DNA from: a virus
Virus record (IMG/VR): IMGVR_UViG_3300049445_000179
Span: 1 to 42,581 of that record
DNA length: 42,581 nucleotides
Strand: one strand, 5' to 3'
The translations under genes and the position numbers were made by a program. Under the pieces are notes generated by a model that worked only from the letters and a program-made list of their open reading frames with translations, had not been told where the DNA came from and did no database searches. Positions 254-42,535 of this stretch are shown one piece after another (position 1 is the first letter of the stretch; each line of letters opens with the position of its first letter).

Positions 254-742
254 ATGCCTGGACGGAGACCGAAGCCTAGCTATCTGAAGCTGGTTACCGG
301 CAATCCGGGCAAGCGGCCGATCAACAAGAATGAGCCGAAGCCGAGCCGTGAGAAGCTACCATCGGCGCCCGCAGAGCTTTACGAAGACGCAAAGATTGAG
401 TGGCGCCGCATCGCCCGCGAGCTTCATCGGCTCGGACTGTTGACCACGCTCGATCGCGCCGCGCTCGCCGCTTACTGCCAAGCCTGGGGGCGCTGGATCG
501 CTGCCGAGCGCGCCCTTGCGGAGATGGCGAAGCGCGACATGCTGACCCATGGGTTACTGATCAAGACGACGAACGGCAACGCAATCCAGAATCCGCTGGT
601 CGGCACAGCCAACCGAGCCATGATGGCGATGATGCGTTGCGCCCTTGAGTTCGGCATGACGCCGAGCGCGCGCAGCCGCCTGAGCAGCCCGCAGGGCGCC
701 GACATGACCAACCCCTTCGCCGAGTTCGGCGGCACCGGCTAA
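254..742 (+). CDS. terS: terminase small subunit (P27 / HK97 gp1-like)
   Basis: A 162-residue protein, normal for the P27-type small terminase family. These proteins recognise the packaging site and load the large subunit onto concatemeric DNA in the cytoplasm. The basic N-terminus (MPGRRPKP, then LVTGNPGKRP) is characteristic of the family. It is followed by a helical segment containing WRRIARELHRLGLLT, LDRAALAAYCQAWGRW, and the C-terminal SPQGADMTNPFAEFG tail. Its stop overlaps the terL start in a TAATG arrangement, so the two are translationally coupled. The family assignment rests on these motifs and on position immediately before terL. Confidence 0.9.
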   Translation: MPGRRPKPSYLKLVTGNPGKRPINKNEPKPSREKLPSAPAELYEDAKIEWRRIARELHRLGLLTTLDRAALAAYCQAWGRWIAAERALAEMAKRDMLTHGLLIKTTNGNAIQNPLVGTANRAMMAMMRCALEFGMTPSARSRLSSPQGADMTNPFAEFGGTG

Positions 743-2430
743 TGCCGAAGAAACGGGCGATCGAGCATCCGCACGTTGAGCGTGCCGAAGCTTATGTCGC
801 CGACGTTCAATCGGGCCGCCGGCCGGCTTGCCAGTGGGAACGGCTCGCCTGCGAGCGGTGGCTCCGGGATCGCCAGAGCGAGAAGGCTGGGCCCTACCGT
901 TTCGAGCCGCTGATGGCGGAGCGGGTTTGCCGGTTCATCGAGCGGCTACCGCACACCAAGGGCGCCTGGGCGGCGCGCCACGAAGCGCTCCGGCTCGAAG
1001 GCTGGCAGTGCTTTGTCCTGGCCAATGCGTACGGCTGGCTCCGTCGCTCGGACGGCAAGCGGCGCTTCCGCGAGGTCGTCACCATCGTCCCGCGCAAGAA
1101 CGGCAAAAGCATCCTCTCGGCTGGCGTCGGCCTCTACATGCTGTGCGCTGACGGCGAGCACGGGGCGGAGATTTACTCCGGCGCCGGCACCGAGAAACAA
1201 GCCTGGGAGGTCTTCCGGCCGGCGCGGATGATGGCCGAAGGTCGGCCCGATCTACGGCAGCATTTCGGCATCCAGGTCAATTCGTCGAATATCAACATCG
1301 TTGGCAATGGATCGCGGTTCACGCCGATGATCGGTAAGCCCGGTGATGGCGCGATGCCGAGTTGCGCGATCGTCGACGAATACCACGAGCACGACAGCCC
1401 CGATCAGTACGACACCATGCTGACCGGCATGGGCGCACGCGAGCAGCCGATGATGTGGGTAATCTCGACGGCGGGCGATAATCTGGCCGGTCCATGTTTC
1501 GACAAAATACTGACCTGTCGCAAGATACTTGAAGGCGTCATCGAGGACGACGAAAAGTTCTTCATTGAATACACGGTGGATCCCGAGGACGACTGGACGG
1601 CGCCCGAAGCGATCCTCAAGGCGAACCCCAATCTGGATGTGTCGGTATCAAGCGAGTTCCTACTCGCCCGCCAGCGCGAGGCGGTCCGCAACACCCGTGA
1701 GCAAGGCCGGTTCAAGACCAAGCACCTGAACCTATGGGTCAACGCCCGCGCCGCGTTCTTCAATATGCAAAGCTGGGCGGCCTGCCGGAACCCGGACTTG
1801 CAGCTTGAAGACTTCGAGGGCCAGCGTTGCAACATCGCGCTCGATCTCGCATCGAAGCAGGACATCGCGGCGATGCAAATCCTGTTCGATCTCGGCGACG
1901 GCAGCTTTGCGACGTTCGGCCGCTACTATCTCCCCGAGGAGATCGTCGAGGAAGCCGGCAAGGATCATTACCGCGGCTGGGCGCTATCCGATCCGCCGAA
2001 GCTGATCCTGACGCAAGGCAACATGATCGACTTCGAGCGGATCGAGGAAGACCTCGACGACATCCGCCGCCGCTTTACCGTCGAGGAAATCACCTTCGAC
2101 CCTGCGCAGGCGACCATGCTGATGACGCGGCTGATGGCGAAGGGCGCGAAGGTCAGCGAGTTCCAGCAGACCGCGGCGAACTTCACCGAGCCGATGAAGC
2201 AGGTTGCCGCGCTGATCGACGCCGGCCGGCTCAAGCATAACGCCGACGCCAACGATCCGATGACGTGGATGATGTCCAATGTCACCGCGCGGCTCGACGG
2301 CAAGGATCAGGTCTTCCCGCGGAAGGAGCGGCCCGAGAACAAGATCGACGGGCCGATTGCGCTGATCATGACCATGCGGCTCGCGATGATCGAGCAGCCG
2401 CAATTCAACGTCGCGACGCTGATCGGCTAA
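742..2430 (+). CDS. terL: terminase large subunit
   Basis: A 562-residue packaging motor with ATPase and nuclease domains. It pumps DNA into the prohead through the portal and cuts the concatemer. Visible ATPase motifs are a Walker A-like VPRKNGKS (residues 116-123), Walker B CAIVDEYHEH (208-217) and a coupling motif STAG (242-245). The nuclease domain begins near residue 364, with ALDLASKQDIAA supplying the first metal-binding Asp (about 368). The length and the P27-type small subunit partner place it in the HK97-like terminase group. HK97-like terminases cut at cos, so cos packaging is expected here, but that is inferred. Confidence 0.95.
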   Translation: MPKKRAIEHPHVERAEAYVADVQSGRRPACQWERLACERWLRDRQSEKAGPYRFEPLMAERVCRFIERLPHTKGAWAARHEALRLEGWQCFVLANAYGWLRRSDGKRRFREVVTIVPRKNGKSILSAGVGLYMLCADGEHGAEIYSGAGTEKQAWEVFRPARMMAEGRPDLRQHFGIQVNSSNINIVGNGSRFTPMIGKPGDGAMPSCAIVDEYHEHDSPDQYDTMLTGMGAREQPMMWVISTAGDNLAGPCFDKILTCRKILEGVIEDDEKFFIEYTVDPEDDWTAPEAILKANPNLDVSVSSEFLLARQREAVRNTREQGRFKTKHLNLWVNARAAFFNMQSWAACRNPDLQLEDFEGQRCNIALDLASKQDIAAMQILFDLGDGSFATFGRYYLPEEIVEEAGKDHYRGWALSDPPKLILTQGNMIDFERIEEDLDDIRRRFTVEEITFDPAQATMLMTRLMAKGAKVSEFQQTAANFTEPMKQVAALIDAGRLKHNADANDPMTWMMSNVTARLDGKDQVFPRKERPENKIDGPIALIMTMRLAMIEQPQFNVATLIG

Positions 2431-2445
2431 GCGGAGATCAATAAA

Positions 2446-4371
2446 ATGTCGTTGGTTCGCAAAACTGCTACCGGGAAGCAGGCGGGGACGCTTACCTATG
2501 TCCTCAGCGACGCCTCCGTTGACCGCTATGGCGATGTGATCGAGCAGAACGGCTGGCGGCTTGATTCGTTCAATCGCAATCCGATCGCGCTATTCAATCA
2601 CAATCCGAACTCGCCGATCGGTAAATGGCGCAACGTGCGCGTCGAGGACGGCCGGCTTATGGGCGACCTCGAACCGGCAGCGCGCGGCACGTCGCAGCGG
2701 GTCGATGAAATACTCAGCCTGATCGAGCAGGACATCTTGCGCGCGACCAGCGTCGGCTTTCTTTCGGTCGAGAGCGAACCGCTTGATCCGAAGAAGCCAT
2801 ACGCCGGTATGCGCTTCATGCAGCAGGAATTGCTGGAGACCAGCATCGTCTCTGTGCCAGCCAATCCGGCTGCGCTGCAAGTAGCACGATCGCTCAACAT
2901 TTCCGACGAGACGCTATCCATCGCCTTCGGCGGGCAAGCCGTAATGAGGCGAACAGGACCGACGCAAACCGGCGGGCAAGCCGTGATGAAACGCCATTCA
3001 AAGGCGCATAACCCAATGACAACCCCAACCATCTCCCGACAAATCCAAGACGTGCAGGGCAGGCTCAACGTAGCGCGTGATGCGCTGCTTGAACTTGCCA
3101 AAGACCCCGAGCACGAGGTCGACGAAGCCGATGGCTATCAGTCCGAGATCGAAGCACTGACGCAGCGGCTCGGATCGCTTGAGCGTACCGAGAGGGCGCT
3201 CGCGGCGCGCGCCGGGGACGATGACCCGACGCCGAAGCCGCAGCAGCAGCAATCGGCGGCGCTTGCCCGGCGCCCGTTTAGCATCCCAGCAAAAGAGGTC
3301 GAGCCGCGCGATCTGCTGTGGCGTGGGCTTACCGCTCTGGTCAAATCCAGGGTGCAACACATTCCGCTCACTCAAGCGCTCGAGGAGGGATACCCTGAGC
3401 ACGAGGCGACGGCGGTCGTTTGCCGTGCCGCAGTAGCCGGCGCGACGACGACAACGGCGGGATGGGCGGCCGAACTTGTCCAGTTGGCGCAGGCCGACTT
3501 CCTCGCCAACCTCGTGCCCACCTCGGTATTCCCGCGGCTGTCTGGCCTGGGTGCTTCGTTGGCATTCGGTCCGAACGCCGGGGCGATCAAGATACCGTCG
3601 CGCGCCACGACGCCCTCGATCGGCGGCTCATTCGTCGCCGAAGGCGCGCCGATCCCGGTCCGCCGGCTCGGCACGACCAGCATCACACTCTCGCCGCACA
3701 AGGTCGGCGGGCTGGCGGTGTTCTCCCGCGAGATCGCCATGTACTCGAACCCGGCGATCGAGAGCATCATCCGCGAGAACATCACGCTGGACACATCGAT
3801 CAACATCGACGGCCTGCTGATCGACAACGTCGCGGTCTCGACGACGCGGCCGGCTGGATTGACCAATGGCGTGACACCGCTCACCGCTTCGACGGCGCAC
3901 AGCTACACCGCGATCCTTGCCGATCTCCAGGCGTTGACCAACCCGTTCTACGCCGTCAACGCCGGCCGGATATTGTGCCTCCTGCTCAATCCGGCACAGG
4001 GACAACAACTGATCTTCGCGCCGGGGCCGACCGGCGTACCGTTCGGATGGACCCAACAGTTTACCGCACGGTTCAACGTGATTGAGTCAACGAGTGTGCC
4101 CTCGGGCCAAGTCTACATGATCGATGCGGCGGACTTTGTTTCGGTCTCGGGCGCACCGGAATTCGAGGTCAGCGAGGAGGCGACCCTCCACATGGAGGAC
4201 ACGACCCCGTTGAACATCGGCACCGCCGGATCGCCGGCAACCATCGCGGCTCCCACGCAGTCGATGTTCCAAACTGCGCAGATCGCGGTCCGAATGCTTG
4301 CCAACGTCACCTGGGCGATGCGGCGCGCCGGGATGGTGCAGTACATGACCGGCGTGAACTGGGGACCGTAA
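2446..4371 (+). CDS. prohead protease / major capsid protein fusion
   Basis: A 641-residue fusion. Residues 1-150 match the S78 prohead protease family (HK97 gp4-like): DRYGDVIEQNGW, then FNHNPNSPIG with the catalytic His at about 52, RATSVGF with the Ser at about 102, and ELLETSIVSVPANP. Residues 191-641 match the HK97-fold capsid: a coiled, charged delta-like domain (about 191-260), then AGWAAELVQLAQADFLANL, FVAEGAPIPVRRLG, SREIAMYSNPAIE and a C-terminal AVRMLANVTWAMRRAGMVQYMTG. The protease normally cuts the delta domain off the capsid protein during maturation. An in-frame ATG at 3016 (Met191) could give a separate capsid product. An adenine-rich leader precedes the 2446 start. Confidence 0.93.
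   Translation: MSLVRKTATGKQAGTLTYVLSDASVDRYGDVIEQNGWRLDSFNRNPIALFNHNPNSPIGKWRNVRVEDGRLMGDLEPAARGTSQRVDEILSLIEQDILRATSVGFLSVESEPLDPKKPYAGMRFMQQELLETSIVSVPANPAALQVARSLNISDETLSIAFGGQAVMRRTGPTQTGGQAVMKRHSKAHNPMTTPTISRQIQDVQGRLNVARDALLELAKDPEHEVDEADGYQSEIEALTQRLGSLERTERALAARAGDDDPTPKPQQQQSAALARRPFSIPAKEVEPRDLLWRGLTALVKSRVQHIPLTQALEEGYPEHEATAVVCRAAVAGATTTTAGWAAELVQLAQADFLANLVPTSVFPRLSGLGASLAFGPNAGAIKIPSRATTPSIGGSFVAEGAPIPVRRLGTTSITLSPHKVGGLAVFSREIAMYSNPAIESIIRENITLDTSINIDGLLIDNVAVSTTRPAGLTNGVTPLTASTAHSYTAILADLQALTNPFYAVNAGRILCLLLNPAQGQQLIFAPGPTGVPFGWTQQFTARFNVIESTSVPSGQVYMIDAADFVSVSGAPEFEVSEEATLHMEDTTPLNIGTAGSPATIAAPTQSMFQTAQIAVRMLANVTWAMRRAGMVQYMTGVNWGP
2928..2984 (+). repeat. direct repeat at the protease-capsid junction
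   Basis: The 15-mer CGGCGGGCAAGCCGT occurs at 2928-2942 and again at 2970-2984, exactly 42 bases (14 codons) apart. It encodes GGQAVMRR and then GGQAVMKR in the fusion gene. The duplication lies in the linker between the protease and the delta-like domain, which is where a cleavage site or a remnant of two separate genes would be expected. Seen directly in the sequence; its role is inference. Confidence 0.7.
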
Positions 4372-4824: not shown

Positions 4825-5235
4825 ATGTCCGACAAACAGCCCAACGACAAGCGGCCCACTGATGAGCGGCCCCACGATCAGCGCCAACCTCATCAGCAGC
4901 AACCCGCCGACAAACGGCCCGCCGCCGAGCAGCGTCCGGCCGAGCAGCGCCACGCCGCACAGCATCCGGCCGACAAGCGCCCAACCGTCGATGAACGTCG
5001 CGTCGCCGGGATGCAAGTTACGCCGACGCGCGAGGAGATGGAGCAGGAGCACGCCGAGCGGCTCGAAACGGTAAACAATCCTCCGCAGCCAACGCCGACC
5101 CAGGCGGAAGCCGACGCGATGATGGAGGGCACTTACGAGCAGGGGCAGGAACCCGAAGCGGCGGCACGCGAAAGGCGGGAACGTGAGACGCGCGACATGA
5201 AGCCGCAGGCCGGCGCGGAGTATAAAACGCGCTGA
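4825..5235 (+). CDS. charged low-complexity protein between capsid and portal
   Basis: A 136-residue, extremely hydrophilic protein, not assigned to a family. Its first 60 residues are short tandem units of the type (D/A)(K/Q/E)RP, rich in Lys, Arg, Gln, His and Pro. The C-terminal half is acidic and predicted helical (REEMEQEHAERLETV, ARERRERETRDMK). It has no hydrophobic core and is probably disordered. It begins MSDK like the preceding gene. The stop overlaps the portal start (TGATG). A scaffold-like or head-internal role is possible from position only. Confidence 0.6.
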   Translation: MSDKQPNDKRPTDERPHDQRQPHQQQPADKRPAAEQRPAEQRHAAQHPADKRPTVDERRVAGMQVTPTREEMEQEHAERLETVNNPPQPTPTQAEADAMMEGTYEQGQEPEAAARERRERETRDMKPQAGAEYKTR

Positions 5236-6665
5236 TGGGCAACTGGCTCGCCCGCATCCTACCTTGGGGCCAGAAGCAGGTCGCAGCCGAAGGGCAATAC
5301 CGCCCTGGCCCCTACATGCTGTCGCAAGGCTGGCTGAGTGCCAAGGCGGGCCGGGATTGGAACTGGTGGCAGACCGGCTATCGCTTGCAGCCCTACGGCG
5401 AGCGGCGGGCGATGGTCGAGGCGTGCGTCAGCGCATACTCGCAGACCGTGCCGATGTGTCCCGGTAATCATTGGCGCAAGCTCACCAACGGTGGCCGCGA
5501 GCGCGTCGTCAATTCGGCGCTGACCCGCATCCTCCGCCAGCCAAACGATTACCAGAGTATCAGCGACTTCCTGTTAAACCTGACGCGGCGCCTTTATGAG
5601 CATGGCGAGGCGTTCGCGTTGGTTGCCAGAAACAACCGCGCCGAGATCGCCGAGCTTCACCTGATGCGGTTCGGTCGCGCACAAATCGCCGGGGATGGGT
5701 CCGTTTTCTACTCGTTGAGCGGCAACGAGATCGTCGATCGGCGGCTTGATCTCACGTTGTCGGAGCCTACCCCGGCGCGCGACGTCCTCCACGTCCGGTT
5801 GCATACACCGCGGCATCCGCTGCGTGGCGAAAGCCCGATCCTCTCCGCAACGCTCGACCTTGCGATGTCGGGCGCCGCGCTCAACCAGCAAATCGCGTTC
5901 TATCTCAACCAAGCGCGGCCGAGCTTTACGCTGGAAACCGATTTAGTAATGACGCCGGAGCAGATCGAGCAGACCCGGCAAAAGTGGAATGAGGTCAGCC
6001 AGGGCGAGAACGCCGGACTGACCGCGGTCCTGGCCAACGGGTTTAAGGCAAAAGCCATCGAGACCAGCGCGGTCGACGCTCAGCTTGCCGAAATGCTCAA
6101 GATGACCGACCAGAACATCGCGCTGGCGATGCGCGTCCCGTTGCAGATTCTCGGCATCGGCGGCCCGACCTACGCTTCGACCGAACTCCTGATGCAATCG
6201 TGGATTGCGAGCGGCCTGGGCTTCACGCTCAACCACATCGAGGAAGCGATCGGGAATCTGTTCGGTCTCTACGGCCAGCCCGACGAATATCTGGAATTCG
6301 ACACCCGCGCGTTGCTCCGCAGCGCATACCGCGAGCGGATCGAAGCTCTCGCGCGCGGCGTCATCAGCGGCATTTACTCGCCCGACGAGGCGCGGGCGGA
6401 GGAGGACTTGCCGGCGGTCGAGGATGGCTACGGCGCGATGCCGCGCGTCCAGCAGCAGGTCGTCCCGCTGTCCTACGGCGCGGACCTCAAGCCACCGTCA
6501 GCCACACCGCCAGCGCAGTCATCCGCGCACGGGTCAGCAGGCGACGGTTCGTCCGCCGATGATGGCTCGTCTGCCGATGGGAGTGGCGATGGCGCAGATC
6601 AATCTAGCAAGCTCGCGGACTACATCCTGTGTCACGCAGATGACCAAAGCCGAACTTTACACTGA
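5235..6665 (+). CDS. portal protein (HK97 family)
   Basis: A 476-residue protein. Portals form a dodecameric ring at one capsid vertex through which DNA enters and leaves, and which joins head to tail. Family features include [64 protein letters not shown], and [20 protein letters not shown] near residues 300-320. The last 50 residues are a low-complexity Ser/Gly/Asp tail ([20 protein letters not shown]). The gene lies after the capsid gene, whereas the usual order is portal, protease, capsid. Its 3' end overlaps the next gene by 26 bases. Confidence 0.93.
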
Positions 6666-25215: not shown

Positions 25216-25232
25216 GTTGCCTAAACGGCAAC
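25216..25232. promoter_or_regulatory. operator-like palindrome at the integrase stop
   Basis: GTTGCC-TAAAC-GGCAAC, extended to 8-bp arms (GGGTTGCC and GGCAACCC, 25214-25234). It overlaps the integrase stop codon. It matches the 17-bp palindrome found at the repressor/cro region, so repressor binding is plausible; it may also act as a small hairpin at the int 3' end. Confidence 0.6.
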
Positions 25233-26582
25233 CCGTCCGCGCGGGGGCTGGGCGCCGCGCTGGGGCAGCCGCACCACGTTGCTGGGCGTTACTGCCTCCT
25301 GAACCGCCTCGGCCTCCAGGCCGATTAGGGCGCGCGCGGCGGGGGCGCCCTGCATCAGCATGTCAGCCCATGCGCAGGCCACCCGGCGCCGTTCCTCGAT
25401 CAATTCCGCATGGTCATAGACCATCGCAGCGTGGGACACCCCGACGGGCTTGTGTGCCAGCATGGCATCGACCACCGGCTTGTCACGGAAGTTCGCCTCG
25501 ACCATCAGCGTGGCGAACGTGTGGCGCCAGCCGTGCACCGTGTGGATGGGGCCTAGGCCCGCGCGCGCCAGCGACGACGCCATCATGACGTTCAGCACGG
25601 AGCGAGCAGCCTGCCGCTTGCCGGCATACATCGACGGGAAGATGAATTCGTTGCGGGTCAGCGCGCGCGCCGCGGCAAGCACGTCAAGCGCCTGGGGTGA
25701 CAGCGCCACGATGTGGGCCCGCCGCTTGCCCGCCTTGCCCTTCATCCGCTCCGCCGGGATCGTCCAGATGCCGCGCTCACGGTCAATCTCACGCCACTGC
25801 GCGCCAATAGCTTCGAGCTTACGCACGGCGGTCAACGCGATGAACCGATGGCACAACAGCGTATAGGGCGAAGGAGCGCGCCGGCCGGAAGCATCCGCCT
25901 CCATTGCCGCCAGGACAGCGCGGGCCTGATCCATGCTGCGGACGTGCGCGCGATGCTCGCGCCTTTCAGCGCTGTGCGTGGGTAGATCGACCGCGACCTG
26001 GGTGACGGGGTTAAACGGCACCATGCGGTGACGGAGCGCATAATCGAAAATGCCACCGAGATATTGCTTGACGCAGGTCGCCGTGGCGGGCGCGCGTCGA
26101 TAGAGGGCGAAGATCAGCGCCTCGACGTTCTCCATCGTGACATCGGCCACCGGCAGGTCGCCCAGCTTCGGATAGACGAACCGGGCGAGGCGAGAGCGCA
26201 TGGCCGCATCGTGGTCATCGGTCCATTCCGTCCTGATCCGCGCGCGTTCGGCCCATAGCTCGGCGATTGCGCGCAGCGTGTTCGCCTCGCCGGCCAGCCG
26301 GGAGGTGACGACCTCGCGCCGGATCGACTTCGGGTTGCTGCCTTGGCGGACCTGCTCGCGGATTGCCGCTCTGGCAACCTGGGCGTCCACGATCGACATC
26401 TCGGGGAAGCGTCCCAGCACGACGGTCGTCTCGGCACCGCCGCGGGGCTGATACTTGCAGCGCCAGGACTTGGTGCCGTTGGGCGTCACCCAGAGGAACA
26501 GGCCTTCGCCGAACCGAAGCGCGATCGGCTTGCCGGTGGCCTTCGCTGCCTTGGCCTCGGCGAACGTGGCGTGGCGTTGCAT
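25221..26582 (-). CDS. int: tyrosine recombinase integrase
   Basis: A 453-residue phage integrase that recombines attP with a chromosomal attB. The N-terminal arm-binding domain has the familiar GEGLFLWVTPNGTKSWRCKY (about residues 26-44). A core-binding SAM-like domain spans roughly 100-200. Catalytic residues are visible: Arg254 (ALTAVRKLEAI), His350-xx-Arg353 (HGWRHTFATLM), His377 (LAHKP) and Tyr389 (MVYDHAEL). The start at 26582 (MQRHATFAEAK) was chosen because the family begins close to this motif. A start 23 codons upstream (26651) would run into repeats and an operator. Confidence 0.95.
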   Translation of the reverse strand: MQRHATFAEAKAAKATGKPIALRFGEGLFLWVTPNGTKSWRCKYQPRGGAETTVVLGRFPEMSIVDAQVARAAIREQVRQGSNPKSIRREVVTSRLAGEANTLRAIAELWAERARIRTEWTDDHDAAMRSRLARFVYPKLGDLPVADVTMENVEALIFALYRRAPATATCVKQYLGGIFDYALRHRMVPFNPVTQVAVDLPTHSAERREHRAHVRSMDQARAVLAAMEADASGRRAPSPYTLLCHRFIALTAVRKLEAIGAQWREIDRERGIWTIPAERMKGKAGKRRAHIVALSPQALDVLAAARALTRNEFIFPSMYAGKRQAARSVLNVMMASSLARAGLGPIHTVHGWRHTFATLMVEANFRDKPVVDAMLAHKPVGVSHAAMVYDHAELIEERRRVACAWADMLMQGAPAARALIGLEAEAVQEAVTPSNVVRLPQRGAQPPRGRVAV

Positions 26583-26602
26583 CGTGGTTATTCTCCCGTT
26601 TT

Positions 26603-26636
26603 GGTACCCGGAAAATACCCGGTGACTCCGGGTACC
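26603..26636. repeat. inverted repeat GGTACCCGG / CCGGGTACC
   Basis: Perfect 9-bp arms at 26603-26611 and 26628-26636, with a further TACCCGG copy between them. It lies about 20 bases upstream of the integrase start, so it could be an integrase arm site, an Xis site or an operator for int. Confidence 0.6.
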
Positions 26637-26643
26637 AGGGCAC

Positions 26644-26660
26644 ATTGCCATAACGGCAAC
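26644..26660. promoter_or_regulatory. operator-like palindrome upstream of int
   Basis: ATTGCC-ATAAC-GGCAAC, one mismatch from the GTTGCC-N5-GGCAAC consensus. It is centred about 70 bases upstream of the chosen integrase start and would place int under control of the same repressor. Confidence 0.6.
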
Positions 26661-29288: not shown

Positions 29289-29512
29289 CAGGCAGCCGAC
29301 GCAGCGCGTTGCGCGTGCAGCGGCGGCATCTGTGACACTTCCTCGATGTCGAGTTGCTGCGGGTTGCGCGCGTCATCATCACCGGCCGGCATAGCTTCGA
29401 TCCGCGCGCCCCAATATGCCAGCACGCGTCGGCGGCCGCCGACTGACAGGACGGCGAGATCGCGTAGACCGCGCCGCATGATCTCCATCTCGTGGTCGGG
29501 TTTGTGCTTCAT
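29288..29512 (-). CDS. small hypothetical protein
   Basis: A 74-residue charged protein starting MKHKPDHEMEIMRRGLRDLA. One helix (GGRRRVLAYWGARIEAMPAG) is followed by a disordered end. It overlaps recT by four bases and the HTH gene by one, so it is part of the same co-translated run. No family recognised. Confidence 0.55.
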   Translation of the reverse strand: MKHKPDHEMEIMRRGLRDLAVLSVGGRRRVLAYWGARIEAMPAGDDDARNPQQLDIEEVSQMPPLHAQRAASAA

Positions 29513-30717
29513 TGTGTCGTGCCTCCCTTGAGTACTGCCTTGCGCAGCGCGATGGCCTCGTTGATGCGATCCATGTCAGGCGGGAACAGATCGCGCGTTT
29601 TGACCTTCCACGACGCGCTGACAGTCAGCGTGTCGAGTTCGTCGGCGTTCATCGCCTCGATCTCGGCGAGCAGTTCGCGGATCGGATCATCCGGCCAGTC
29701 GTCGTCGCTCGGCGGCGGTGGATCATCCCCGATCGGCACCTTCGGCTCGACGACGCGCTCGTGGGCTTCGCGTAGCCAGTCATTGATATTCTGGCGGATC
29801 AGCGCCGGGGCTTTTTCCAGCGCCTTCCGCACCCGCGCATGGCTCGCGATCTCATGGAATGCTGCTTCGGTCGCTACGCCCGCCAGGAGCGTCTGGACGT
29901 TCTTGATCCAACGTGAGGCATTCTGCTCCTCAAGCAGCGCGCGACCGGGCGTAGCGTCGCCAGGGGGCGACGGCGGATAGACTTGATCAGCCTGCCGGTC
30001 GCGGTCGGTGGGCGTCGACTCTTCGTGGTCAACGCGGTGCTCGATCGTAACGCCGCCCGCCTCGATCTCTCGCCCTTCCATCTCCTCGGCGGCGTATTCG
30101 TTTACATCCTCGGGGAAGCCCAGGCGCAGCGATGCCGCCAACGCGCATTTATGCAACTGACCGCGTGGCCGCTTCTCCCACATATTGTTAGGAAGCTCGG
30201 AGCGAAATGCCTGCCGGCCATACGCCTCCATCCAATAGACCGGCTGGGAGAATGACCTCCGTTCGCCACCGACTTGCCGCCAGACTTTGACGGAACACCA
30301 CTCCCGGAAGGTCACGGTTGTGCTGACCGGCTGCCCCTCGCGATCCGTCCCCTTGAACGTGTGAGTCTCCTCAGGCCCCCACTCCGGTTCATCGACGCCC
30401 GCGAACGCCTTGGAGCGAGCTGCGGTGGTCAGCAGTTCGTTGATCCCCGGCCAGACGGTCTCAACCTCCCGACGCAGCGAGCTATTGTAAACCGGAACGA
30501 TGTGCACGGGTCGCTTGAACGGGTCCAAGTGCCGCGCTGCACAATAGGACACCGCGAGCATGATCGACTCCGCTGACTTCGCCGCCGGCCAAATCGTCTC
30601 GCAGAGAACGCGCCAGCTTTGCGCGGTGCCGTGGTAATTCGGCGGCGGAAGCAACCGCAGAGCAACCGCGGTTGAATCCTGCTGTCTCGCCGCTGGCCTT
30701 GCTTGCTGCGCCATCAT
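29509..30717 (-). CDS. RecT/Bet single-strand annealing protein
   Basis: A 402-residue recombinase. The Bet/RecT signature is visible early: MLAVSYCAARHLDPFKRPVH, then IVPVYNSSLRREVETVWPGI, then NELLTTAARSKAFAGVDEPE. These proteins anneal complementary single strands during phage recombination. The C-terminal 150 residues are acidic and Pro rich, as often in larger members. A strong ribosome binding site (GGAGGA) precedes the ATG, and the start overlaps the Gp157-type gene. No YqaJ-type exonuclease gene lies beside it. Confidence 0.9.
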   Translation of the reverse strand: MMAQQARPAARQQDSTAVALRLLPPPNYHGTAQSWRVLCETIWPAAKSAESIMLAVSYCAARHLDPFKRPVHIVPVYNSSLRREVETVWPGINELLTTAARSKAFAGVDEPEWGPEETHTFKGTDREGQPVSTTVTFREWCSVKVWRQVGGERRSFSQPVYWMEAYGRQAFRSELPNNMWEKRPRGQLHKCALAASLRLGFPEDVNEYAAEEMEGREIEAGGVTIEHRVDHEESTPTDRDRQADQVYPPSPPGDATPGRALLEEQNASRWIKNVQTLLAGVATEAAFHEIASHARVRKALEKAPALIRQNINDWLREAHERVVEPKVPIGDDPPPPSDDDWPDDPIRELLAEIEAMNADELDTLTVSASWKVKTRDLFPPDMDRINEAIALRKAVLKGGTTQ

Positions 30718-39402: not shown

Positions 39403-39858
39403 ATGCCGACATTTCGCGTGACCAGCGGCGCCCTGACGCTCGATAGCGTCGGGGGCAATTACCCAGACCAAGGCCTGCCGGGCGATCAGCCTGGCATCGA
39501 CAATTCGCTGCCAATTCCTCCACCGCCACCGGGGATTTGGCCGCCGCCTGTGCCGGCGCACCCAATAGTGCCGATTCCGCCGGGAGGCTCGCAGCCGCCG
39601 CCCGGCACGATCTGGCCCAGTCCTGGCCATCCAGCGCACCCGATTGCGCCTGGTGGCTCCGGTGGCTCGCCGCCGCGGCCCGATCAGGGATTGCCGCCGA
39701 CAGGCATGGACCCGCATCCGTCGCACCCGATCGCGTCAGGCACGTACTGGTGCCTCGTGTATCTGCCTGGGTTCGGTTGGAAGTATGTAGTCATCGATCC
39801 ATCGCTGCATGTCGACGCCTCGCCGCCGGCCCCGCAGCCAGAGCCGACTCCGCACTGA
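39403..39858 (+). CDS. proline-rich virion or surface protein
   Basis: A 151-residue protein. Residues 1-25 begin MPTFRVTSGALTLDSVGGNY, about 35-115 are dominated by Pro, Gly and His (SLPIPPPPPGIWPPPVPAHP, HPIVPIPPGG, GHPAHPIAPGG), and a folded end contains ASGTYWCLVYLPGFGWKYVV. The Pro/Gly zone is probably an extended spacer. Not recognised; a structural role is possible. Confidence 0.55.
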   Translation: MPTFRVTSGALTLDSVGGNYPDQGLPGDQPGIDNSLPIPPPPPGIWPPPVPAHPIVPIPPGGSQPPPGTIWPSPGHPAHPIAPGGSGGSPPRPDQGLPPTGMDPHPSHPIASGTYWCLVYLPGFGWKYVVIDPSLHVDASPPAPQPEPTPH

Positions 39859-39984: not shown

Positions 39985-40626
39985 ATGAGATGCTTACTCG
40001 CAACGACTGCCATCATCGCCGGCGCCATATTCTTCCACGCACCAGCCTATGCCACGGTCATCCTGTCGTTCGGCCAGAGCGCTAGCAATCAGGCGATCAC
40101 TGCCACTGAGAACGGCGCACAGACTGCAACCACACTGAGTGCAGTCGACGTGCCGATTGGCATTACTCAGATCGAGAACGGCGTGGCGACGAATGCGTTC
40201 TTCGACCTGAGTGCATCCAGTAACGGCAGTGCCGTGCCGATCCTCGGTGGCACCGCTCAGAAATTCAGTGGCTCGTTCTCCATCAACTCGGCAGCCAACA
40301 ACACCGGCACCAACTTCCTCAGTGGCACGTTCACTGACGTGACGTTCGGCACTGGTCCGGGCGGGGCACTGTCGGTTGGCGCACCGCCTGATGCGCTGGT
40401 GTTCACCAGTGCGGTGATCACGACACTGGACTTGCCTGCTGCCATTGGCCTTGGCTTTGCCAACGTGCTGCCTGCATTCACCCAAGTCGGTGACAGTATC
40501 GGCTCGTTCACCTCGTCGGTGAGCGGCACGTTCAGTGCCAGCGCGGTGCCCGAGCCTGTCTCGCTTGCGTTGCTATGCACCGGCTTGGCCGGTCTGGTCT
40601 TCGTCAAGCGGCGCAATGCCCGCTAG
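39985..40626 (+). CDS. secreted PEP-CTERM sorting-signal protein
   Basis: A 213-residue protein. It has an N-terminal signal peptide (MRCLLATTAIIAGAIFFHAP then AYA) and a Thr/Ser/Asn-rich beta domain (FSGSFSINSAANNTGTNFLS, FTDVTFGTGPGGALSVGAPP). The C-terminus is VPEP, a hydrophobic helix (VSLALLCTGLAGLVFV) and a basic tail (KRRNAR). That tripartite end is the PEP-CTERM signal, which exosortase recognises for cleavage and sorting to the cell surface or matrix in bacteria that make exopolysaccharide. The gene's last codons overlap the ParB-like start. It is probably host-acquired and displayed on the lysogen or infected cell; function unknown. Confidence 0.8.
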   Translation: MRCLLATTAIIAGAIFFHAPAYATVILSFGQSASNQAITATENGAQTATTLSAVDVPIGITQIENGVATNAFFDLSASSNGSAVPILGGTAQKFSGSFSINSAANNTGTNFLSGTFTDVTFGTGPGGALSVGAPPDALVFTSAVITTLDLPAAIGLGFANVLPAFTQVGDSIGSFTSSVSGTFSASAVPEPVSLALLCTGLAGLVFVKRRNAR

Positions 40627-41293
40627 TCGCAAGACGACATCCAAGCCGTCGCCGCCCAAGATCGAATGGCCGGCGGATCAGGTCGAGCGGCGACCGATCG
40701 CCGAGCTTGTGCCGTATGCGCGCAACGCCCGACTACATTCCGACGCGCAGATCGCGCAGATCGCCGCGTCTATACGCGAGTGGGGCTGGACGATCCCGGT
40801 ACTGGTCGATGAGACCGGCGCGTTGATCGCCGGCCACGGTCGCGTGCTCGCGGCGCGGCAATTGGAGATCGAGCACGTTCCGACGATGACGGCGCGCGGC
40901 TGGTCGGACGCGAAAATCAGAGCATACCGGATCGCCGACAATAAACTCAGCCTCAACGCCGGCTGGGATACCGGGATGCTCAAGCTCGAAATGCAAGACC
41001 TGATCGACCTGGGCGCCGACCTGGGATTGACCGGATTTCAGGACTTCGAGTTGCAGTCCCTTATGGCGCTCGGCGTAGAGGACTCCGAAGACGAATGGCA
41101 AGGAATGCCCGAATTCGACAATCAGGATAAAACTGCATTCCGCACCATAACCATGCATTTTGCTGATCAAGACGCCGTTGACGAATTCCAGGAACGGCTC
41201 GGCATACCAGTGCCTGCCAAGGCTCGTTACCTGTGGTTTCCCGAGGTCGAACTGGAGCCGAGCCACGGTAAGGTGTTTGTCAGTGAATCCTAG
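40616..41293 (+). CDS. ParB/Srx-like DNA-modification partner
   Basis: A 225-residue protein from the ATG at 40616, inside the end of the PEP-CTERM gene. Residues 25-115 are a ParB N-terminal-like domain: PIAELVPYARNARLHSDAQI, ASIREWGWTIPVLVDETGAL and the signature IAGHGRVLAARQLEI. LGLTGFQDFELQSLM and a C-terminal domain with TITMHFADQDAVDEFQERLG then KARYLWFPEVE follow. In phages this domain is regularly fused or adjacent to DNA methylases and to TET-associated glycosyltransferases. No methylase is fused here. It overlaps the glycosyltransferase by 11 bases. Role inferred from family association. Confidence 0.85.
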   Translation: MPASRKTTSKPSPPKIEWPADQVERRPIAELVPYARNARLHSDAQIAQIAASIREWGWTIPVLVDETGALIAGHGRVLAARQLEIEHVPTMTARGWSDAKIRAYRIADNKLSLNAGWDTGMLKLEMQDLIDLGADLGLTGFQDFELQSLMALGVEDSEDEWQGMPEFDNQDKTAFRTITMHFADQDAVDEFQERLGIPVPAKARYLWFPEVELEPSHGKVFVSES

Positions 41294-42167
41294 GTTTCCG
41301 GTCTACATCCCCTCCAAGGGCCGGCACGATACCAGGATCACGATGCGCTACCTCGACACGATGGGCGTGCCGTACCGCGTCGTTGTGGAGGAGCAGCAAT
41401 ATGCAGCCTACGCGGCTGTGATCCCAAAGGCCCAGCTCCTCGTTCTCGATAAGGAATATCAGCGCCGATACGATACCTGCGACGACTGGCCTGATGATCG
41501 CAGCAAGGGATCGGGACCGGCGCGGAATTTTATCTGGGACCACGCAATTGCCGAGGGTGCGCGGTGGCACTGGATCATGGATGACAACATTTCCGGGTTT
41601 TTCCGGCTGCGCGCGAACAGCAAGGCGATGTTCGGCGACGGCACGGGCTTTCGCTGCATGGAGGATTTTTGTCTGCGATACGAGAACGTCGGCATGGCAG
41701 GACCGAATTACGATTTCTTCGTGCCGCGCAAGGAGCGCAAGAACCCGTTCACGCTGAATACCCGCATTTACTCGTGCATCCTGATACGCAACGACCTGCC
41801 GTTCCGCTGGCGTGCGCGATACAACGAGGACACCGACCTATCGCTCAGGATGCTCAAGGCCGGTCTGTGCACCGTGCTGTTCAACGCGTTTCTGCAAAAG
41901 AAAATCACGACGCAGGTTCTGTCGGGCGGCAACACGACGGAGCTATACCGCAACGGCACGCTCGCCAAGTCGAACATGATCGTCGCGTTGCACCCCGATG
42001 TCTGCAAGCTGGCCTGGAAATACGGACGCCATCACCATCACATCGACTATCGGCCATTCGCGTGCAATCGGCTGGTGCGCAAGCCCGACCTGGACGTGAT
42101 CCCACCGGGCGCTAACGAATACGGTATGACGATCAGACCTAAGCCCACCACATGGCTGGCTGCATGA
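41283..42167 (+). CDS. TET-associated glycosyltransferase (TAGT, GREB1-like)
   Basis: A 294-residue predicted DNA-base glycosyltransferase from a GTG inside the ParB-like gene. Family features in order: VYIPSKGRHDTRITMRYLDT (7-26), GPARNFIWDHAI (78-89), HWIMDDNISGFFRLR (96-110) with the DxD-type metal motif MDDN, FTLNTRIYSCILIRNDLPFR (156-175), the acidic YNEDTDLSLR (180-189) and HHHIDYRPFACNRL (251-264). TAGT proteins are thought to add sugar to hydroxymethylated pyrimidines in phage DNA. It shares no similarity with T4 alpha/beta glucosyltransferases. The acceptor-making enzyme is not identified in this window. Confidence 0.9.
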   Translation: MNPRFPVYIPSKGRHDTRITMRYLDTMGVPYRVVVEEQQYAAYAAVIPKAQLLVLDKEYQRRYDTCDDWPDDRSKGSGPARNFIWDHAIAEGARWHWIMDDNISGFFRLRANSKAMFGDGTGFRCMEDFCLRYENVGMAGPNYDFFVPRKERKNPFTLNTRIYSCILIRNDLPFRWRARYNEDTDLSLRMLKAGLCTVLFNAFLQKKITTQVLSGGNTTELYRNGTLAKSNMIVALHPDVCKLAWKYGRHHHHIDYRPFACNRLVRKPDLDVIPPGANEYGMTIRPKPTTWLAA

Positions 42168-42202: not shown

Positions 42203-42535
42203 ATGCCGCGGCGTCCGCCGGTCCACATTTCGCCGCACAGCAAGCGTGCTGCATGGTCTCACCCACGTGGCAAGGAGACCGCTGCAGCGCGTGGGTATGG
42301 CAAGGAATGGAGCACCATTCGCGCTCATGTTCTCGCCGAAGAACCGTGCTGCCGCTACTGCCTCACGCAAGGCAAGCACACCAGGGCAACGACGGTCGAC
42401 CACATCCGCCCAAAGGCACGAGGCGGCACCGATGCGAGGTCGAACCTTTGCGGTTGCTGCGATCAGCATCAGCGAACGAAGGCGGCGCGAGAAGGCGCGC
42501 AGGGCTACCGGCTGGCAGCCCTGGCCTTCAAATGA
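42203..42535 (+). CDS. HNH endonuclease, terminase-associated
   Basis: A 110-residue protein. It has HPRGKETAAARGYGKEWSTI, then CCRYCLTQGKHTRATTVDHI, RPKARGGTDARSNLCGCCDQ: zinc-binding CxxC pairs, the VDHI active-site Asp-His and the NL-x-CxxC end. This is the HK97 gp74-type HNH family, which is encoded beside cos and stimulates terminase cleavage in several siphoviruses. If the window is circular it lies directly upstream of terS, as expected. A weak T-rich stem precedes it. Confidence 0.9.
   Translation: MPRRPPVHISPHSKRAAWSHPRGKETAAARGYGKEWSTIRAHVLAEEPCCRYCLTQGKHTRATTVDHIRPKARGGTDARSNLCGCCDQHQRTKAAREGAQGYRLAALAFK

What the first reader, a model, noticed from the sequence alone, without database searches (positions are those of the whole stretch)
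39985..42167. PEP-CTERM, ParB-like and TAGT genes form one overlapping cassette
The PEP-CTERM gene, the ParB-like gene and the TAGT gene overlap end to start (40616 inside the first; 41283 inside the second). The TAGT motifs (MDDN, YNEDTDL) are intact. The families are known: TAGT and ParB-like domains are associated with phage DNA hypermodification, and PEP-CTERM with surface sorting. Their physical coupling suggests co-expression of a surface protein and a DNA-sugar system, which I do not recognise as a described set.
Basis: partly seen in the sequence, partly recalled or inferred. Interest (0 to 1): 0.75.

Follow-up and report, generated by a model that had tools for sequence, protein, structure and literature searches.

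The report
Phage sugar-transferase with obligate partner domain
A soil phage carries a probable DNA sugar-adding enzyme that, in every phage where it could be checked, is encoded with the same small uncatalogued protein domain (here the tail of a ParB-like protein), while the neighbouring cell-surface gene is only a passenger.

Summary
In detail: PEP-CTERM (39985-40626), ParB-like (40616-41293) and TAGT glycosyltransferase (41283-42167) genes overlap by 11 nt at each junction in a temperate phage. PEP-CTERM is a passenger: upstream in 1 of 99 testable TAGT relatives, and elsewhere in other phages.

The real unit is smaller. The last ~64 residues of the ParB-like protein (41090-41281, W-x-G-M-P-E-F...HF...K-x-x-W-F-P) form a domain with no Pfam, PHROG or NCBIfam match. 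Fetched by this domain alone, 79 of 80 IMG/VR loci have TAGT; the 80th ends 47 bp past it. None of 65 ParB loci without TAGT carries it. In isolate phages (Aeh1, POP12, PTm1, Kuja, two Vibrio phages) it is fused to TAGT, and its divergence follows TAGT, not the ParB domain it is attached to. The ParB partner sits in a pre-terminase slot that otherwise holds DNA methyltransferases or Mom (37 of 40 loci), which points to DNA as target. T6-type and TET-type TAGTs, beside a hydroxymethylase or TET, lack the domain; domain-bearing phages mostly lack both enzymes.

Best reading: a two-part DNA glycosyltransferase with unknown acceptor base. DNA modification is inferred, not shown.

The parts
39985..40626 (+). 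PEP-CTERM protein, 213 aa (signal-peptide-like N terminus; sorting motif 40543-40614); probable passenger, not part of the module
   Evidence: rare upstream of TAGT
40616..41293 (+). ParB-like protein, 225 aa
   Evidence: phrog_620 1.6e-49; model matches Noc/ParB CTPase domains
40679..41068 (+). ParB N domain (residues 22-151), adaptor shared with phage DNA-methyltransferase and Mom partners
41090..41281 (+). 64-aa TAGT-partner domain (W-x-G-M-P-E-F ... HF ... K-x-x-W-F-P) at the C terminus of the ParB-like protein
41283..42167 (+). TAGT glycosyltransferase, 294 aa (GTG start), GT-A fold, DXD-like MDDN at 41577-41588, YNEDTDL at 41820-41840
   Evidence: PF20691 7e-46, phrog_842, fold search of a relative, conserved columns
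42203..42535 (+). HNH endonuclease between the module and TerS (wraps to record start)
   Evidence: same order in L004 and L082
254..742 (+). terminase small subunit, next gene after HNH if the record ends are adjacent
   Evidence: PF05119 5e-29; L004 shows HNH-TerS-TerL contiguous
742..2430 (+). terminase large subunit

Best explanation
The functional unit is a two-part glycosyltransferase: a GT-A-fold TAGT plus a dedicated 64-aa partner domain. In this phage the partner domain is carried on the C terminus of a ParB-like DNA-adaptor protein translated from an overlapping gene. The ParB domain probably brings the enzyme to phage DNA, as the same ParB family does for methyltransferases and Mom in the same pre-terminase slot; the partner domain docks on TAGT and orients it or supplies acceptor recognition; TAGT moves a sugar from a nucleotide-sugar donor onto the DNA before packaging, shielding it from restriction. 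Shown: the gene order, the coupling of domain and TAGT, fusion, co-divergence, slot sharing. Inferred: action on DNA, docking, protection. The acceptor base is unknown; the usual hydroxymethyl sources were not found in most of these phages. PEP-CTERM is an independent surface-protein passenger.
For: Coupling: all 84 domain-bearing loci of the first 165 are TAGT loci, and 0 of 65 ParB loci without TAGT have the domain (L165 is a TAGT locus). Loci fetched by the domain alone: 79 of 80 have TAGT, the other ends 47 bp past the domain; 8 of the 80 repeat earlier contigs. Among 50,697 isolate phage records, 19 carry the domain and all are among the 24 TAGT records. Fusion: the domain is N-terminal on TAGT in Aeh1, POP12, PTm1, Kuja (two copies), Vibrio 1.076.O and 1.124.O. 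Domain end to TAGT match: median 11 nt over 163 loci. Divergence: domain tracks TAGT (rho 0.51, partial 0.45) rather than the attached ParB domain (rho 0.29, partial 0.14). DNA as target: the ParB slot holds N6/N4 MTase 19, Mom 9, C5 MTase 8, other TAGT 1 of 40 loci. Sugar chemistry: genes inserted between domain and TAGT include an NAD-dependent epimerase, SAM methyltransferases, radical-SAM enzymes and TAGT paralogues. Nothing else is universal: among 18 long TAGT records only these two proteins occur in all.
Against: No nucleoside or biochemical data exist here. Many TAGT loci lack a ParB domain (the partner domain stands alone), so the ParB adaptor is optional; the GxxR motif of ParB is absent in one subgroup. 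No acceptor-producing enzyme was found, so the reaction is undefined and a non-DNA acceptor is not excluded. Tenacibaculum phage PTm1 has an annotated pyrimidine hydroxymethylase, so the absence of a hydroxymethyl source is not general. The partner domain is only moderately confident in the ParB model, and docking was not read out from the fused model.
Confidence: 0.7

Rival explanations
1. Conventional TAGT: it glycosylates 5-hydroxymethyl-C or -U made by an unrecognised phage or host enzyme; the small domain only aids folding or replisome recruitment.
For: T6-type TAGT lies directly beside dCMP hydroxymethylase and Nonlabens P12024L TAGT beside a TET/JBP; PTm1 has an annotated hydroxymethylase.
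Against: Tet_JBP: 0 of 50 records and 0 of 7 domain-TAGT isolates, with the model ringing in P12024L (2.8e-29). Thymidylate synthase family: 0 of 50 records. No third gene is universal in 18 long records. Many IMG/VR records are fragments.
Confidence: 0.35
2. The enzyme glycosylates a protein or surface molecule rather than DNA, perhaps together with the PEP-CTERM surface protein.
For: GT-A folds resembling protein glycosyltransferases such as COLGALT1; a surface protein gene is next door.
Against: PEP-CTERM linkage is rare; the ParB slot is otherwise DNA-modification enzymes in 37 of 40 loci.
Confidence: 0.1
3. The domain-TAGT association is shared ancestry without functional dependence.
For: All domain-linked TAGTs form one group in the tree (support 85/88, long branches).
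Against: The domain appears in different architectures (alone, on ParB, fused to TAGT, once downstream, with inserted genes), yet is absent from no TAGT of this group with adequate upstream sequence (L018, with 251 nt upstream, is undecided); it diverges with TAGT rather than with its own polypeptide.
Confidence: 0.07
4. PEP-CTERM, ParB-like and TAGT form one functional three-gene cassette.
For: Overlapping genes here and in L082; the same order in L004, and PEP-ParB-other TAGT in L132.
Against: 1 of 99 testable TAGT loci; the PEP gene body is replaced between the window and L082 while ParB stays 89% identical in DNA.
Confidence: 0.04

Closest known systems
T6-type beta-glucosyl-HMC-alpha-glucosyltransferase (TAGT, PF20691)
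   Same: Same Pfam family, same PHROG (842) and GT-A fold
   Different: Sits beside dCMP hydroxymethylase and lacks the partner domain (PKO111 tested); the window type has the domain, and no hydroxymethylase was found with it
TET/JBP-TAGT-methyltransferase operon (Nonlabens phage P12024L)
   Same: TAGT in a phage DNA-modification operon
   Different: About 22% identical to the window TAGT, has TET/JBP, no partner domain
Solitary TAGTs of phages such as Aeromonas phage Aeh1
   Same: Same TAGT subfamily (50% identity) with the partner domain fused; base recorded as unknown in PMC8056088; solitary TAGTs noted as possible novel transferases in PMC13216743
   Different: In the window the domain is on a ParB-like protein in a separate overlapping gene
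Phage ParB-methyltransferase fusions (phrog_498) and ParB-Mom pairs
   Same: Same ParB N domain in the same slot before the terminase
   Different: The partner enzyme is a glycosyltransferase and the ParB has the extra C-terminal domain

Membership tests
TAGT (PF20691) glycosyltransferase | Match to the family model over its cut-off | tested here: met
   157 bits against a cut-off of 27.5, E=7e-46
TAGT (PF20691) glycosyltransferase | GT-A fold and DXD-like motif intact | tested here: met
   MDDN and other conserved columns intact; a fused relative models as GT-A
TAGT (PF20691) glycosyltransferase | TET/JBP or hydroxymethylase source of the acceptor in the genome | tested here: not met
   No Tet_JBP, C5 MTase or thymidylate-synthase-family match in the window record; this is context, not sequence membership
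TAGT (PF20691) glycosyltransferase | Glycosyl transfer to DNA | not testable with these tools
   Needs LC-MS or an enzyme assay
ParB/Srx superfamily, phage ParB-like | ParB N domain fold and GxxR box | tested here: met
   Foldseek to Noc/ParB 1.4e-6; GHGR present; Pfam ParB_N 21.6 bits, below its cut-off of 26.3
ParB chromosome/plasmid partition protein | Partition operon with ParA and parS | not tested
   No ParA seen among the ORFs scanned; context is DNA modification and packaging
PEP-CTERM protein | C-terminal sorting motif and signal peptide | tested here: met
   PF07589 at cut-off, TIGR02595 over cut-off; signal peptide judged by eye
PEP-CTERM protein | Cognate exosortase | tested here: not met
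   None in 18 PEP-bearing phage records; it would have to come from the host, which is unknown

The most novel reading that the evidence does not exclude
Domain-coupled TAGTs are self-sufficient DNA glycosyltransferases: with the 64-aa partner they glycosylate a base that is not pre-hydroxymethylated by any TET or pyrimidine hydroxymethylase, giving a DNA modification not yet described, delivered by a swappable ParB adaptor.
Probability: 0.25. Interest if true: 0.85.

Novelty: new variant of a known kind. Interest (0 to 1): 0.6.

Why it matters
Solitary TAGTs were flagged in 2026 as an unexplained group (288 of 753 GT-encoding phage genomes, PMC13216743), and the Aeh1 enzyme is listed with an unknown base (PMC8056088). 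A near-deterministic partner domain, a map of where it sits and a DNA-modification slot turn this into a direct experiment: express TAGT with and without the domain and analyse the DNA. It also separates three TAGT contexts (hydroxymethylase-linked, TET-linked, domain-linked) that database names such as 'beta-glucosyl-HMC-alpha-glucosyltransferase' now blur, and it suggests that ParB-like proteins serve phages as general adaptors for DNA-modifying enzymes.

Tried and rejected
Three-gene cassette: rejected from relatives. Search for a hidden base hydroxylase: Tet_JBP, thymidylate synthase family and C5 methylase models across 50 records, gene-family clustering near TAGT and in 18 long records: no consistent third component. 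Partner domain against PDB sequences (best E 0.085), PHROGs, NCBIfam: no match. Its fold could not be assigned: only moderate confidence in the ParB model. Plasmids: no TAGT relative. Bacterial genomes: one relative only, a FCB-group MAG, so the host of the window phage stays unknown; no tRNA in the window. Literature: no paper found linking ParB with TAGT or glycosyltransferase hypermodification, nor a phage-encoded PEP-CTERM protein (titles and abstracts only); Iyer et al. 2013, where TAGT was described, is not held, so prior mention of the domain there cannot be excluded.

Full report
Setting. The window is a 42,581-base IMG/VR virus record. It is a temperate phage by content: integrase 25221-26651 (-), RecT 29509-30717 (-), Gp157, an HTH repressor-like gene, TerS 254-742, TerL 742-2430, a protease-capsid fusion 2446-4371 and a portal 5235-6665. 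GC is 63%. No similar phage is found in the phage collection at DNA level (first 25 kb).

Observation. The three genes and their two 11-nt overlaps are real. TAGT matches PF20691 at 7e-46; the ParB-like protein matches phrog_620 at 1.6e-49 and models as a ParB/Noc N domain; the PEP-CTERM motif is just over the Pfam cut-off and over the TIGR02595 cut-off. Near-invariant TAGT residues are intact. An HNH gene follows; L004 shows HNH-TerS-TerL contiguous, so in the window the block probably continues across the record ends into the packaging genes.

PEP-CTERM is a passenger. Its closest relatives (68-85% identical; L156-L164) lie in phages without ParB or TAGT nearby. Of 99 TAGT loci with at least 3 kb upstream, one (L082) has a PEP-CTERM-like end upstream; L004 is another, with less upstream DNA. 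Between the window and L082 the DNA is 89% identical from the PEP-CTERM motif (40548) to about 41019, inside ParB, but the PEP body is not alignable, i.e. it has been swapped. PEP-CTERM genes occur in 18 of 49 phage records examined (nine of them fetched by PEP itself), at various places; no exosortase is encoded.

A partner domain of TAGT. TAGT-upstream ORFs share a C-terminal 64-residue domain; in the window it is 41090-41281. Invariant in 30 sequences: M6, P7, F24, F33, P51; nearly invariant W3, Q39, W49. In the first 165 loci, 84 had the domain; 83 were recognised as TAGT loci in the table and the last, L165, is the genome-contig TAGT hit. The TAGT loci without it are those whose TAGT starts within 252 bases of a contig end. 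None of the 65 ParB loci without TAGT has it.

Reverse test. Fetching loci with the domain alone gave 80 loci (513 or more relatives exist); 79 have TAGT, and L234 ends 47 bp after the domain. Eight of the 80 contigs had been fetched before, so about 71 are independent confirmations. In the isolate phage collection the domain consensus finds 19 records, all among the 24 TAGT records; the five others are Kuja (two records) and Vibrio 1.124.O, where a profile finds the domain, and P12024L (two records), which is the TET type and lacks it.

Architectures. Stand-alone gene of about 75-95 aa, C-terminal tail of ParB, N-terminal fusion to TAGT (isolates; L039, L152, L245), once downstream (L064). 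The gap from domain to TAGT is 0-40 nt in 123 of 163 loci; in 17 a gene lies between. Inserted genes include an NAD-dependent epimerase, SAM methyltransferases, radical-SAM proteins, an N6/N4 methylase and TAGT paralogues.

Co-divergence. Over 35 loci (595 pairs), domain identity follows TAGT identity (Spearman 0.51, partial 0.45, 0 of 2000 Mantel permutations) more than identity of the ParB N domain on the same polypeptide (0.29, partial 0.14). Window against L082: ParB N 85%, domain 45%, TAGT 65%. The domain therefore belongs to TAGT.

The ParB slot. In ParB loci without TAGT, 37 of 40 dereplicated loci have a DNA-modification enzyme as fusion or next genes: N6/N4 methylase 19, Mom 9, C5 methylase 8, a T6-like TAGT 1. 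The last (L129/L130/L132) has ParB and a TAGT of another subfamily, and no domain. This shared slot is the main reason to think that the window TAGT acts on DNA.

Acceptor. T6-type TAGT overlaps dCMP hydroxymethylase in PKO111, and P12024L has TET-TAGT-methyltransferase; neither has the domain. In 50 domain-TAGT records there is no Tet_JBP and no thymidylate-synthase-family protein, and C5 methylase in 4; the Tet_JBP model works, since it finds P12024L at 2.8e-29. Among isolates, Vibrio 1.076.O and 1.124.O have neither; Aeh1, POP12, henriette and Kuja have a protein annotated thymidylate synthase; PTm1 has in addition one annotated as pyrimidine hydroxymethylase. Annotation alone cannot separate synthase from hydroxymethylase, so Kuja in particular stays open. 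In 18 long records only the ParB/domain protein and TAGT are universal. Hence the acceptor is unknown. One paper lists the Aeh1 enzyme with an unknown base (PMC8056088); another notes solitary TAGTs in 288 of 753 phage genomes as potential novel transferases and does not mention ParB (PMC13216743).

Tree. All domain-linked TAGTs group apart from T6-type, TET-type and other TAGTs (85/88), with long-branch warnings.

Limits. IMG/VR records are mostly fragments; the host is unknown; no chemistry is shown; the docking of the domain is inferred from fusion, adjacency and co-divergence.

Noticed in passing
window 39985-40626; L004, L082, L087, L132, L156-L164; L084 about 2655-2726: Phages encode PEP-CTERM (exosortase-sorted) proteins, in 18 of 49 records examined, at varied positions (between TerS and TerL in L084), without an exosortase; no literature found on this.
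   Followed up: partly
L099, L118, L125, L128, L131, L133, L145, L146, L149: Phage Mom proteins (PF25680) recur next to the same ParB-like gene before the terminase, as do C5 methylases; ParB looks like a general adaptor in a swappable DNA-modification slot.
   Followed up: partly
L190 703-1644; L151, L198, L228; L052, L227: NAD-dependent epimerase, radical-SAM and SAM-methyltransferase genes inserted between the partner domain and TAGT suggest elaborated sugars in some phages.
   Followed up: partly
L169 (Vibrio phage Kuja): Two tandem domain-TAGT fusions; N termini also weakly match a second copy of the domain.
   Followed up: no
L035 9442-9981: A 179-aa protein between domain and TAGT that looked by eye like a 2OG-Fe oxygenase (H-x-D pattern); no Pfam match.
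   Followed up: partly
window 39403-39858: Proline-rich 151-aa protein upstream of the PEP-CTERM gene, with relatives beside PEP-CTERM genes in L156, L157, L160, L161, L164.
   Followed up: no
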